A stretch of DNA of 64,000 bases from Candidatus Aenigmatarchaeota archaeon (GTDB taxonomy: Archaea > Aenigmatarchaeota > Aenigmatarchaeia > GW2011-AR5), in contig JACPDL010000003.1 in assembly GCA_016184005.1 (NCBI GenBank), positions 444,974 through 508,973 of the forward strand, in the 5' to 3' direction. The position numbers and the translations under genes were made by a program. Shown in pieces: positions 3,059 to 33,326 of the stretch. The notes below the pieces were generated by a model. It saw only the letters and a program-made list of their open reading frames with translations. It had not been told where the DNA came from and did no database searches. Numbering within the stretch: position 1 is the first letter of the stretch; each line of letters starts with the position of its first letter.

Positions 3059-3171
3059 CGGGCCCGGAGGGATTCGAACCCCCGACCTCCATAGACGCTT
3101 TCATCAAAAGCTTGGTCCGAAGCATCGCCATTATTCATTCAGACGCTCTATCCAAGCTAAGCTACGAGCCC
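3059..3171 (-). tRNA. tRNA-Arg(UCG) with two non-canonical introns
   Basis: Nucleotide 1 is at 3171 and the discriminator G at 3059. The acceptor stem (GGGCUCG with CGGGCCC), D arm, and T arm with loop UUCGAAU are complete. Two inserts break the anticodon arm: 3124-3139 (16 nt, position 30/31) and 3091-3112 (22 nt, position 41/42). The first is framed by CGUC pairing GGCG with bulges UG|A and AU|G. The second is framed by GGAC pairing GUCU with bulges CA|A and AU|G, plus an intron hairpin GCUUU/AAAGC. Removing both gives anticodon stem UCUGG/CCAGG with loop CUUCGGA, a 75-nt tRNA. A TATA-like stretch lies about 25 bases upstream. No intron sits at the usual 37/38 site. Confidence 0.85.
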
Positions 3172-28473: not shown

Positions 28474-28514
28474 ATGGTTGTTTTAAGTTTACTCTCAATA
28501 TACTTCTTTCTATA

Positions 28515-28594
28515 GGGCTCGTAGCTTTATTTGGCTGATGGCTTGGTTCGGTGCAGGATAATCGTGGGTTGTGGGTGGTTGATACGTGGTCTAC
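28515..28594 (+). ncRNA. 80-base repeat copy 2, candidate small RNA with tRNA-like 5' end
   Basis: Starts GGGCTCGTAGCTT, identical to the first 13 bases of tRNA-Arg and, with the upstream CTTTCTATA, sharing 19 bases with the start of tRNA-Pro. A TTTTAAGTTTA box lies about 20-30 bases upstream, similar to the tRNA-Pro promoter region. The ends can pair (GGGCU with GGUCU or GUAG with CUAC), and a hairpin forms at positions 28-31/40-43. The 3' half is G/U-rich and lacks a T arm, so it is not a tRNA. It lies between two convergent genes. Confidence 0.55.
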
Positions 28595-28609
28595 AAAACA
28601 AACTGATTT

Positions 28610-29821
28610 TTAACTCGTTAGCCACTTCCAAACAGGCATTATTATAACTTTTTTATTGGCAACCGATAATTCATCTTCCTGATTAAATGTTAATATCATG
28701 CCCTCCTTAAGATTAAGGACGTCGAGAGCTTCCTGAAGCCCTTTGATTTCACGCTCTTTGTTGTCATCATTCAGTTCATAGCATACCTGAATAGCGGCTG
28801 TTATATTGTTCTTTTCTCCAGCCAGGAAATCACATTCATGTTTTTCTCTGAAGTAAAATACATTTTTATATTTTCTCCTAAGATGCAGGAAAACTGTATT
28901 TTCAAGCATCCTTCCCTTATCTTCAGAGAACGATGCAGAATTAGTTGCTGATAACCCATTGTCTATAGCATATACTTTCTTAGGATTTTTAATCTGTTTT
29001 TTTAAAGAATGGCTGAATCTTGGAATAGTAAATAGCAAATAGCTGTCCTCAAAGTAAGAAATTAGTGATATTATAGTATTTACTGAACCAAGCCCAAATG
29101 TTTCATTTAATGACCTGTAAGAAAACTCTTTTCCAATATTTGTTAATAGATATATTGCGACTTCTTTAACTAATCTGGGGTTGCGCAAATTATACCTCAC
29201 AACAATATCGCGCACTATTATGTCATTCAGAAGCTCGTAAAGTATCTCGTTTCGATTATCTTTAAGATATTGAGGAAAACCGCCTCTTTTCATATAAGAT
29301 TCAAATGAGTTTATACCGGATTTTGATTTTGTGATCTTCAGAAATTCGCCAAAAGAAAATGGGAAGAGCTCAAACCTTATATGCCTTCCAGTAAGCCTCG
29401 TTCCAAGCTCCTTGCTGAGTAATGAAGCATTAGACCCTGTAAGCACAAAATGCATTTTCTTGTCTAACATTTGCCTTACAAAAAGCTCCCATTTCTGCGC
29501 ATTCTGTATTTCATCAAAAAAATAACAATCTGCTTTTCCGTATTCTTCAGCAAAGACGTCATTAAGCTTTTGAAAATCACCTGCTTCAAAAGATGCCGCC
29601 CTCGGGTCCTCGAAATTGAAATAATAGAAGTTTTTTCTTTTCCTGATTAGCTGAAGAAGTAGTGTGCTTTTTCCGCATCTTCTAACGCCTGATATAACTA
29701 GCGCAAAAGGCAGGTTAATGTCTATATCATCTAGTTTTTCTCTTATTACTCCTATTTCAAGCCCTTCCATGTCCTTGCGCTGTGACTTGACAATCTCCCT
29801 CAGTGTTTCCTTTAGCATCAT
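28610..29821 (-). CDS. AAA ATPase with DUF4143 (AAA_14 family)
   Basis: A 403-residue ATPase of the archaeal AAA_14 type. Walker A is GVRRCGKSTLLLQLI, Walker B is DCYFFDEIQN, and sensor 1 is VLTGSNASLLSKELGTRLTGR. The C-terminal DUF4143 region ends in a PDDEXK-like segment (FYFREKHECDFLAG then AIQVCYEL). The family is widespread in archaea, often mobile, with unclear function. A CTTTATATAC TATA box about 25-35 bases before the start suggests a leaderless transcript. It lies between repeat copies 2 and 3. Confidence 0.9.
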   Translation of the reverse strand: MMLKETLREIVKSQRKDMEGLEIGVIREKLDDIDINLPFALVISGVRRCGKSTLLLQLIRKRKNFYYFNFEDPRAASFEAGDFQKLNDVFAEEYGKADCYFFDEIQNAQKWELFVRQMLDKKMHFVLTGSNASLLSKELGTRLTGRHIRFELFPFSFGEFLKITKSKSGINSFESYMKRGGFPQYLKDNRNEILYELLNDIIVRDIVVRYNLRNPRLVKEVAIYLLTNIGKEFSYRSLNETFGLGSVNTIISLISYFEDSYLLFTIPRFSHSLKKQIKNPKKVYAIDNGLSATNSASFSEDKGRMLENTVFLHLRRKYKNVFYFREKHECDFLAGEKNNITAAIQVCYELNDDNKEREIKGLQEALDVLNLKEGMILTFNQEDELSVANKKVIIMPVWKWLTS

Positions 29822-29903: not shown

Positions 29904-29981
29904 TATTTGCCTACGGGTTTGATTCTGTTGGTTAAGAATTAGGCTGATAAAAGTTGCTAAAATTATCAGCATAAAATACCC

Positions 29982-30061
29982 GGGCTCGTAGCTGTGTTAG
30001 GCTGATGGCTTGGTTTTGTGCAGACTAATCGTGGGTTATGGGTGGTTGATTCGTAGCCTAT
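29982..30061 (+). ncRNA. 80-base repeat copy 3, candidate small RNA with tRNA-like 5' end
   Basis: Starts GGGCTCGTAGCTG. Its ends pair as GGGCU/AGCCU (and CG/CG), and a D-arm-like GCUG/UGGC with GG in the loop can form. Compared with copy 2, substitutions at stem positions mostly keep pairing (for example C-G to C-G and U-G to U-A on the 3' strand). An 8-bp inverted repeat GCTGATAA/TTATCAGC lies just upstream, with AT-rich promoter-like sequence inside it. Its last four bases overlap the end of the small gene at 30058. Confidence 0.55.
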
Positions 30062-30264
30062 AAAATGCCGTGCCTAGAATCTTCTAGATTTTTAATTATC
30101 ATGTCAAGAAGAAGATTCCATTGTTCTTTAGTAAAATCGGCTCGCCTGTCTAGAATCAATTTTAGTCCTGTTTGAATTTCTTCATGAGAAAAATAGTTTA
30201 GATTCTGCAGAAAGCTATGAACCGTAGCTTCTGGATAATTTACTTTGTTGGCGAAATTATTCAT
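30058..30264 (-). CDS. Small protein of unknown function (68 residues)
   Basis: A polar, helical protein (FLQNLNYFSHEEIQTGLKLIL, then a QWNLLLDMIIKNLE helix). No family is recognised. Codon use is AT-rich. It is the last of three minus-strand genes downstream of the lipoprotein at 31276 and abuts repeat copy 3. Confidence 0.5.
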   Translation of the reverse strand: MNNFANKVNYPEATVHSFLQNLNYFSHEEIQTGLKLILDRRADFTKEQWNLLLDMIIKNLEDSRHGIL

Positions 30265-31276: not shown

Positions 31277-31335
31277 CTTATAGACCTTTAGAAAAGAGTG
31301 TTTTTAAACTTACAAGAAAAAAGAGTCTTTCTATA

Positions 31336-31524
31336 GGGCTCGTAGTCTAGTTTGGTCAGGACCCGAGCTTAAGAAATTGCTCAATGGGTGGAAGCCGCTA
31401 AGAGGGTGAAAACCAATGAAGGTGGTTTTCCGAACCAGCTTGAAACCCCGGTTCAAACGGCCCTTTTCAAAAAGCGCCGGCGGAAAACGGCAGCGAAAAG
31501 AGCCTGAAATTCCGGGCGAGCCCA
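31336..31524 (+). tRNA. tRNA-Pro(UGG) with three introns and a four-base anticodon exon
   Basis: Acceptor GGGCUCG pairs perfectly with CGAGCCC, discriminator A. Introns: 31371-31384 (14 nt, position 33/34; GAGC:GCUC, bulges UU|A and AA|U), 31389-31436 (48 nt, canonical 37/38; UUUG:CGAA, bulges GG|U and CC|A), and 31458-31510 (53 nt, T loop 59/60; UUCA:UGAA, bulges AA|C and AU|U, long stem GGC(C)CUUUUC/GAAAAG(A)GCC). The 74-nt product has anticodon stem CGAGC/GCUUG, loop UUUGGGA and T arm CCCGG/CCGGG. Exon 2 is only UGGG (31385-31388). The second intron's helix spans the first splice junction, so intron 1 should go first. ProRS is encoded just downstream. Confidence 0.9.
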
Positions 31525-31877: not shown

Positions 31878-33326
31878 ATGGAATCTGAAGAGAAAACGAC
31901 GCTTGGCATAACGGTCAAGAAGAATGAGGATTTCAGCGAGTGGTACAACGAGGTTGTGCTTAAGGGAGGACTGGCTGATTTCGCAGATCTCAAGGGATTC
32001 ATGGTGATAAAGCCGCACGGCTATGCGATATGGGAAAAGATCCAGCAGCATTTTGATGCTGAAATAAAAAAGCTCGGTCACAAGAACGCATATTTTCCAG
32101 CTGTCATACCTGAAAAGTTCTTCGAGAAGGAAAAGGAGCACGTGGACGGCTTTTCGCCTGAGGTCTTCTGGATAACAGAAGCTGGAAAAGAGAAGTTAAA
32201 CGAAAAGTTAGCTTTGCGACCGACTTCTGAAACTATAATCTACGATTCATATTCCAGGTGGATCAGGTCGTGGCGCGATCTGCCTGTGCTGATAAACTGC
32301 TGGAACTCCGTGTTCCGCAGCGAAACAAAGATGACGAAACTGTTCCTGCGCACACGCGAATTCCTGTGGCAGGAAGGTCACACGTGCCATGCTACAAATG
32401 AAGAAGCGGACAAAGAAGTAATGGCCATTCTCAATATCTACAAAAAGCTGATGGAAGAGCTGCTGGCAATACCTGTCATAACAGGCAAAAAGACAGAATC
32501 CGAGAAATTCGCGGGCGCGTTGTACACAACAACGCTCGAGGCGTTAATGCCGGACGGACGTGCAATACAGATGGGAACCTCGCACAACCTCGGCCAGCAT
32601 TTTTCCAAAGCATTCGGGATAAAGTTTTCAGACAAAGACAGGCAGGAAAAATATGTCTGGCAAACCTCATGGGGCATTTCAACAAGACTGATAGGTGCTG
32701 TTGTAATGGCGCATGGGGACGACAAGGGCCTTGTGCTGCCGCCAAGCATTGCGCCTGTGCAGGCTGTGATAATTCCCATAGTCTTCGAGAAGAGCAAGAA
32801 AGCAGTGATCAACAAATCCGAGGAAGTCAGGGACTTGCTTTCAACCCAGTTCAGCGTGGAGCTGGATGACCGCGAAGGCTATTCGGCGGGCTTCAAGTTC
32901 AACGAATGGGAGCTGAAAGGCGTGCCAATAAGGATAGAGATAGGGCCAAAAGACGTGGAGAAGAACCAGGCTGTTCTTGTCAGGCGCGACACAGGAGAAA
33001 AGGAAATTGTCAAGCTGCCTGAGATTGGAAAAAAAGTGAAGCAGACGCTAGAAATGGTGCAGAAAAATCTCTTTGAAAAGTCAAAGAAACTCCTGAAAGA
33101 AAATACTCATGAAGCTTCTGATCTCAAGCAGTTCAAAAAGCTGATTGAAAACCGCGGAATGATAATCGCAAACTGGTGCGGCGATGCAAAATGCGAGGAA
33201 CAAGTAAAGACTGATACAGGCGCCACAATAAGATGCATGCCTTTCGAAAAAATAGACAAGAAGGGCAAATGCATCGCCTGCGGAAAAGACGGCCACTTGC
33301 GCGCTTATTTCGCGAGGGCTTATTAA
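31878..33326 (+). CDS. proS: Prolyl-tRNA synthetase, archaeal/eukaryotic type
   Basis: Charges tRNA-Pro. The 482 residues show class II motifs in ALRPTSETIIYDSYSRW (motif 1/2 region) and TKLFLRTREFLWQEGHT. The C-terminal zinc domain has CGDAKC, RCMP and CIACG, and the protein ends in the conserved Tyr of this type (FARAY). It follows tRNA-Pro and the CsaA-like gene with no gap, a compact proline-charging unit. Confidence 0.97.
   Translation: MESEEKTTLGITVKKNEDFSEWYNEVVLKGGLADFADLKGFMVIKPHGYAIWEKIQQHFDAEIKKLGHKNAYFPAVIPEKFFEKEKEHVDGFSPEVFWITEAGKEKLNEKLALRPTSETIIYDSYSRWIRSWRDLPVLINCWNSVFRSETKMTKLFLRTREFLWQEGHTCHATNEEADKEVMAILNIYKKLMEELLAIPVITGKKTESEKFAGALYTTTLEALMPDGRAIQMGTSHNLGQHFSKAFGIKFSDKDRQEKYVWQTSWGISTRLIGAVVMAHGDDKGLVLPPSIAPVQAVIIPIVFEKSKKAVINKSEEVRDLLSTQFSVELDDREGYSAGFKFNEWELKGVPIRIEIGPKDVEKNQAVLVRRDTGEKEIVKLPEIGKKVKQTLEMVQKNLFEKSKKLLKENTHEASDLKQFKKLIENRGMIIANWCGDAKCEEQVKTDTGATIRCMPFEKIDKKGKCIACGKDGHLRAYFARAY

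What the first reader, a model, noticed from the sequence alone, without database searches (positions are those of the whole stretch)
31336..31524. tRNA-Pro(UGG) with three introns and a four-base anticodon exon
Seen directly: three inserts (14, 48 and 53 nt) at positions 33/34, 37/38 and 59/60, each framed by a four-base-pair helix and two three-base bulges with cuts between bases 2 and 3. The 74-nt product has every stem paired. Exon 2 is only UGGG, the anticodon plus base 37. The 37/38 intron helix uses U32-G35, which straddles the first splice site, so intron 1 should be removed first: an ordered splicing path. Multi-intron tRNAs are known from Thermoproteales and a few other archaea; a microexon of this size is striking, and standard tRNA finders would probably miss the gene.
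Basis: partly seen in the sequence, partly recalled or inferred. Interest (0 to 1): 0.8.

Follow-up and report, generated by a model that had tools for sequence, protein, structure and literature searches.

The report
Proline tRNA gene cut by three introns
A tiny archaeon (phylum Aenigmatarchaeota) carries its only detectable proline tRNA for UGG in four pieces separated by three introns, one piece just four bases long, so the pieces must be joined in a set order; such tRNAs are known from other archaea, and what stands out is that no intact tRNA gene could be found anywhere in this genome.

Summary
Window 31336-31524 (+) is a tRNA-Pro(UGG) gene with introns of 14, 48 and 53 nt at 33/34, 37/38 and 59/60. 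The spliced 74-mer is called tRNA-Pro(tgg) by ARAGORN; ARAGORN and Rfam miss the unspliced gene. Shuffled introns almost never give motifs this good (P about 1e-4, 1e-3, 5e-5). The sister species keeps all three introns. A related genus has the same tRNA, beside the same tRNA-binding/ProRS pair, with no introns and one contiguous anticodon arm. Two other genera share the 33/34 intron with different intron sequence. The ordered path holds: the 37/38 motif exists only after intron 1 is out.

One correction: intron 1 is a relaxed motif (its 5' bulge is essentially a hairpin loop), not a strict bulge-helix-bulge.

The kind is known: P. islandicum tRNA-Pro(UGG) also has three introns, and order-dependent removal is built into tRNAscan-SE 2.0. 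So this is a new member in a new phylum with a very small exon. Wider context is more striking: none of about 30 tRNA loci detected in the 919-kb assembly is uninterrupted, and the single splicing endonuclease found has Ala in place of the catalytic Lys. Splicing itself was not tested.

The parts
31336..31370 (+). exon 1, tRNA positions 1-33
   Evidence: spliced product recognised as tRNA-Pro(tgg)
31371..31384 (+). intron 1 (14 nt) at 33/34; relaxed helix-bulge-helix motif
   Evidence: same position with other sequence in G009/G010
31385..31388 (+). exon 2, microexon UGGG: anticodon 34-36 plus base 37
   Evidence: contiguous in intronless relatives
31389..31436 (+). intron 2 (48 nt) at 37/38; BHB forms only after intron 1 removal
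   Evidence: homologous position in G008 (L134)
31437..31457 (+). exon 3, positions 38-59
31458..31510 (+). intron 3 (53 nt) at 59/60 in the T loop; strict BHB
   Evidence: sister copy folds the same way despite 2 changes
31511..31524 (+). exon 4, positions 60-73
31365..31382 (+). intron-1 central helix GAGC (31365-31368) : GCUC (31379-31382)
   Evidence: pair probability 0.93 in the full precursor
31362..31388 (+). temporary helix C25-C27 (31362-31364) : G35-G37 (31386-31388) that must be undone after intron 1 leaves
   Evidence: pair probability 0.91 in the precursor
31369..31434 (+). intron-2 central helix U32 U33 (31369-31370) + U34 G35 (31385-31386) : CGAA (31431-31434)
31452..31508 (+). 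intron-3 central helix UUCA (31452-31455) : UGAA (31505-31508)
31301..31308 (+). TTTTTAAA, possible TATA box about 30 nt upstream of the tRNA
   Evidence: sequence reading only; similar TTTTTAA upstream in sister L030
31548..31877 (+). tRNA-binding domain protein (likely start ATG 31548)
   Evidence: PF01588, E=4e-15
31878..33326 (+). prolyl-tRNA synthetase
   Evidence: PF00587, PF03129, PF09180

Best explanation
This is the functional and apparently only tRNA-Pro(UGG) gene of an Aenigmatarchaeota species. The transcript first folds so that 28-31 pair with the end of intron 1 and C25-C27 pair with G35-G37, exposing intron 1 to the tRNA splicing endonuclease (EndA). Removing intron 1 joins U33 to U34; the anticodon stem can then form, and U32-G35 can pair with the end of intron 2, creating the 37/38 motif for the second cut. 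The T-loop intron is independent and can leave at any time. Ligation gives the 74-nt tRNA. Shown here: exons, product, motifs, conservation, single copy, and dependence of motif 2 on loss of intron 1. Inferred: transcription, cutting, ligation, and that EndA alone does it.
For: Spliced 74-mer is tRNA-Pro(tgg). Motifs far above shuffles. Motif 2 absent with intron 1 present and present after its removal. Precursor fold: intron-1 helix p=0.93, anticodon stem p=0.00; after intron-1 removal anticodon stem p=0.66. Sister species L030/L111 has identical exons and introns 1-2, and two changes in intron 3 that keep its hairpin. G009 and G010 keep the 33/34 intron and its GAGC:GCUC helix with introns of 37 and 22 nt, and their spliced forms are tRNA-Pro(tgg). 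G008 has only the 37/38 intron. G004 has none, at the same place before the same two genes, with CCGAGCTTTGGGAGCTTGA contiguous. No other tRNA-Pro(UGG) in the assembly; Pro(GGG) and Pro(CGG) are separate intron-bearing genes. One clear EndA gene.
Against: No RNA evidence. The nearest-neighbour model gives motif 2 almost no probability by itself even after intron 1 leaves: the full motif-2 structure is about 4 kcal/mol above the optimum, so EndA would have to trap it. The only EndA found lacks the catalytic Lys and is a short single-gene type, of the kind reported to prefer strict motifs (PMC6379350). The assembly is about 94% complete, so a second gene could be missing.
Confidence: 0.93

Rival explanations
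1. A decaying tRNA pseudogene: the introns disable it and another tRNA reads CCA codons (for example a modified Pro(GGG) or an unseen Pro(UGG)).
For: Unspliced gene is invisible to ARAGORN and Rfam; assembly incomplete (94%).
Against: All stems intact; exons 74/74 identical to the sister species while flanking DNA has diverged; all three motifs intact; no other Pro(UGG) found; every other tRNA gene found is also interrupted.
Confidence: 0.04
2. Same gene, but splicing is not strictly ordered: the endonuclease might cut intron 2 using another helix while intron 1 is present.
For: G009/G010, with the same 33/34 intron, have a second intron at 40/41 whose weak motif is present both before and after intron-1 removal.
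Against: In this gene no BHB-like motif exists at 37/38 while intron 1 is present; U32-U33 are 14 nt away from U34-G35.
Confidence: 0.1
3. Chance resemblance: tRNA-like ends around unrelated sequence.
Against: Shuffle test, conservation and synteny, reversed-sequence control of the finder tops out at 16.0 while this gene scores 20.1.
Confidence: 0.005

Closest known systems
pre-tRNA-Pro(UGG) of Pyrobaculum islandicum (three introns; Sugahara 2008, cited in PMC4390854)
   Same: same isoacceptor, three introns removed by the archaeal splicing endonuclease
   Different: different phylum (Thermoproteales, with (alpha-beta)2 enzyme); the exact intron positions there could not be read here
Two-intron tRNA-Pro of Methanothermobacter thermautotrophicus, 32/33 + 37/38 (from memory, not checked)
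   Same: two introns flanking the anticodon, tiny exon between, one removed before the other
   Different: as I recall exon 33-37 is 5 nt; here the cut is one base later, leaving 4 nt; no third intron
Nested archaeal tRNA introns handled iteratively by tRNAscan-SE 2.0 (PMC8450103)
   Different: known set mainly Crenarchaeota and Thaumarchaeota; no Aenigmatarchaeota case found in the library searched
Intron-rich tRNA sets of Atabeyarchaeia/Freyarchaeia (92-95% of tRNA genes; PMC11291895)
   Same: nearly every tRNA gene interrupted, often more than once and at non-canonical positions
   Different: Asgard archaea; here no intact gene at all was detected, in a 0.92-Mb DPANN genome with one short EndA

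Membership tests
Archaeal BHB (EndA-type) tRNA introns | removal of inserts restores a complete tRNA | tested here: met
   ARAGORN tRNA-Pro(tgg) on the 74-mer
Archaeal BHB (EndA-type) tRNA introns | 4-bp helix between two 3-nt bulges at each junction (strict) | tested here: inconclusive
   met for introns 2 (after intron 1) and 3; intron 1 only relaxed (no stable intron-side helix)
Archaeal BHB (EndA-type) tRNA introns | splicing endonuclease gene in the genome | tested here: met
   one gene, C3:114234, PF01974 E=1.4e-28; catalytic Lys replaced by Ala
Archaeal BHB (EndA-type) tRNA introns | cleavage and ligation in vivo | not testable with these tools
   no RNA data
Multi-intron tRNA genes with ordered removal | a later motif is absent until an earlier intron is removed | tested here: met
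   motif 2: none with intron 1, score 6.1 without it
Multi-intron tRNA genes with ordered removal | broad-specificity endonuclease ((alpha-beta)2 or epsilon-2); a usual correlate rather than part of the definition | tested here: not met
   only a short alpha-like gene found; no beta subunit or epsilon-type gene, (a divergent beta could be missed)
Split or permuted tRNA | exons in separate or reordered transcripts | tested here: not met
   all four exons in order in one 189-nt stretch
Group I intron in tRNA | group I catalytic core | tested here: not met
   introns of 14-53 nt are too short and Rfam finds none

The most novel reading that the evidence does not exclude
In this Aenigmatarchaeota genus no intact tRNA gene remains, so all translation depends on splicing, including relaxed and nested motifs that create a 4-nt anticodon exon. 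It is all done by one short EndA in which the catalytic lysine (M. jannaschii Lys156) is replaced by alanine, so catalysis and broad specificity would rest on other residues, perhaps the lysine-rich insert LKKGPKSAKEH beside the catalytic histidine.
Probability: 0.4. Interest if true: 0.75.

Novelty: new member of a known kind. Interest (0 to 1): 0.48.

Why it matters
It extends ordered multi-intron tRNA splicing to a DPANN phylum and gives a compact test case: an essential tRNA whose anticodon sits on its own 4-nt exon and whose precursor must refold between two cuts. Relatives with 0, 1, 2 and 3 introns in the same tRNA within one family make the history of intron gain and loss directly readable. 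It also warns that tRNA-based completeness estimates and ordinary annotation fail badly on such genomes: ARAGORN's default mode finds no tRNA in 919 kb. The paired question, how one short EndA without the usual catalytic lysine removes relaxed introns, is testable with a purified protein.

Tried and rejected
Rejected: chance; pseudogene; split or permuted tRNA (exons in order); group I intron (too short).

Led nowhere: a loose class-wide pattern for 33/34 plus TGGG exons matched every genome and told nothing; the tighter version gave only G000, G001, G009 and G010 among 31 genomes of the order. ARAGORN with lowered thresholds returns mostly noise. Rfam on the repeated element at 28.5 and 30.0 kb gave nothing above chance. 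Sugahara 2007 is not in the library, so the published exon-size record could not be checked. I did not predict the EndA structure: without coordinates it would not locate a replacement lysine.

Full report
What is there. The stretch 31336-31524 (+) splits into exons of 35, 4, 21 and 14 nt and inserts of 14, 48 and 53 nt. Joined, the exons give a 74-nt sequence that ARAGORN calls tRNA-Pro(tgg), with acceptor 7/7, D 4/4, anticodon 5/5 and T 5/5 pairs. Neither ARAGORN nor the Rfam tRNA model sees the unspliced gene in the window, and ARAGORN's intron mode misses it as well.

Chance. At each junction I scored the 4-bp helix, the two 3-nt bulges and the flanking helices, then shuffled the intron 20,000 times. 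The observed score was reached in 0.0001 (33/34), 0.00095 (37/38, after intron 1 removal) and 0.00005 (59/60) of trials. The junctions do not rest on the motifs alone: relatives with the uninterrupted gene fix them (below).

Order. With intron 1 in place no bulge-helix-bulge motif exists at 37/38; once it is removed the motif scores 6.1, because its central helix is U32 U33 U34 G35: CGAA. In the full precursor the predicted ensemble has the intron-1 helix at p=0.93 and C25-C27:G35-G37 at 0.91, with the anticodon stem at 0.00; after intron-1 removal the anticodon stem rises to 0.66. So a refolding step lies between the two cuts. A weak point: the model does not favour motif 2 even then, the full structure lying about 4 kcal/mol above the optimum. 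The T-loop motif is independent.

Relatives. The ProRS next door identifies the organism as close to Aenigmatarchaeota archaeon RIFCSPHIGHO2_01_FULL_AR5_44_11 (98% ProRS identity). That sister species keeps all exons and introns 1 and 2 unchanged and has two changes in intron 3, both compatible with its hairpin. In the same family: G009 and G010 have the 33/34 intron with 37 and 22 nt and the same GAGC:GCUC helix, plus a second intron at 40/41 with a weaker motif, leaving a 7-nt exon; G008 has a 37/38 intron only; G004 and G007 have none. In G004 the intronless gene stands before the same tRNA-binding protein gene and ProRS, and shares CCGAGCTTTGGGAGCTTGA contiguously across both of our anticodon-loop junctions. 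Among 31 genomes of the order the 33/34 intron is seen only in these four genomes of three genera, and the 4-nt exon only in this genus.

Is it the only copy? In 919 kb (about 94% complete) I found no contiguous UGG anticodon arm with tRNA surroundings and no other tRNA-Pro(UGG). The other two proline tRNAs, GGG and CGG, are separate genes with their own introns. ARAGORN in default mode finds no tRNA at all in the assembly. Pooling ARAGORN intron mode, Infernal and my motif-aware finder gives about 30 loci, a few of them doubtful, and none uninterrupted. The finder's reversed-sequence control peaks at 16.0; accepted hits start at 16.4 and this gene scores 20.1. Relatives still have several intact tRNAs of 71-75 nt.

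Machinery. One EndA gene was found, of short alpha type, with no beta or epsilon-type gene. Tyr and His of the triad are present, but the position of M. jannaschii Lys156 is Ala, here and in 35 of 38 class homologues whose motif could be read, with one Thr; the two that keep Lys are long epsilon-like proteins in another family of the order. Alanine at this position abolishes activity in ARMAN-2 and A. fulgidus enzymes (PMC12397907). [quoted passage not shown] How this enzyme works is therefore open; splicing by it is inferred, not shown.

Against the literature. Three-intron tRNAs are known, including tRNA-Pro(UGG) of P. islandicum (PMC4390854). The need to remove one intron before the next motif forms is stated in the tRNAscan-SE 2.0 paper (PMC8450103). 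Near-complete interruption of a tRNA set is reported for Asgard archaea, 92-95% of genes (PMC11291895). I found no report for Aenigmatarchaeota in the open-licence library searched, which is not proof of absence. I therefore file the gene as a new member of a known kind, with an unusually small exon and a new position pair as far as I could check, and rate the genome-wide context above the single gene.

Noticed in passing
whole assembly G000: ARAGORN default finds no tRNA gene in 919 kb; about 30 tRNA loci found by intron-aware methods, none uninterrupted, introns in D, anticodon and T arms.
   Followed up: partly
L140 (G000 C3:114234-114512) and orthologues: EndA with Tyr and His but Ala at the catalytic Lys156 position, nearly uniform across the class, with a Lys-rich insert (LKKGPKSAK) before the catalytic His.
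   Followed up: partly
window 3059-3171 (-): tRNA-Arg(UCG) with two anticodon-arm introns (16 and 22 nt) and an 11-nt exon between them.
   Followed up: partly
window about 28514-28610 (+) and 29981-30080 (+): Two copies of a roughly 95-nt repeated element (GGCTCGTAGCTGTGCTTGGCTGATGGTTTGGTT...), further copies elsewhere in the genome and in sister L030; no Rfam match; shares a leader and first 10 nt with the tRNA-Pro gene. Possibly a small-RNA family.
   Followed up: partly
L112 at 505 (-), L128 at 226 (-): tRNA-Pro with anticodon AGG in G004 and G017, unusual for archaea as far as I know.
   Followed up: no
L141 at 1501 (-) and L146 at 1501 (+): Nearly identical 46-nt T-loop introns in tRNA-Pro(CGG) of two genera, TGAACTTTTCC...GTTCATGAAA, suggesting shared descent or intron movement.
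   Followed up: no
L200, L201 (G027, G022): A second, roughly 410-aa epsilon-like EndA with normal catalytic Lys beside the short Lys-less one in family f5.
   Followed up: no
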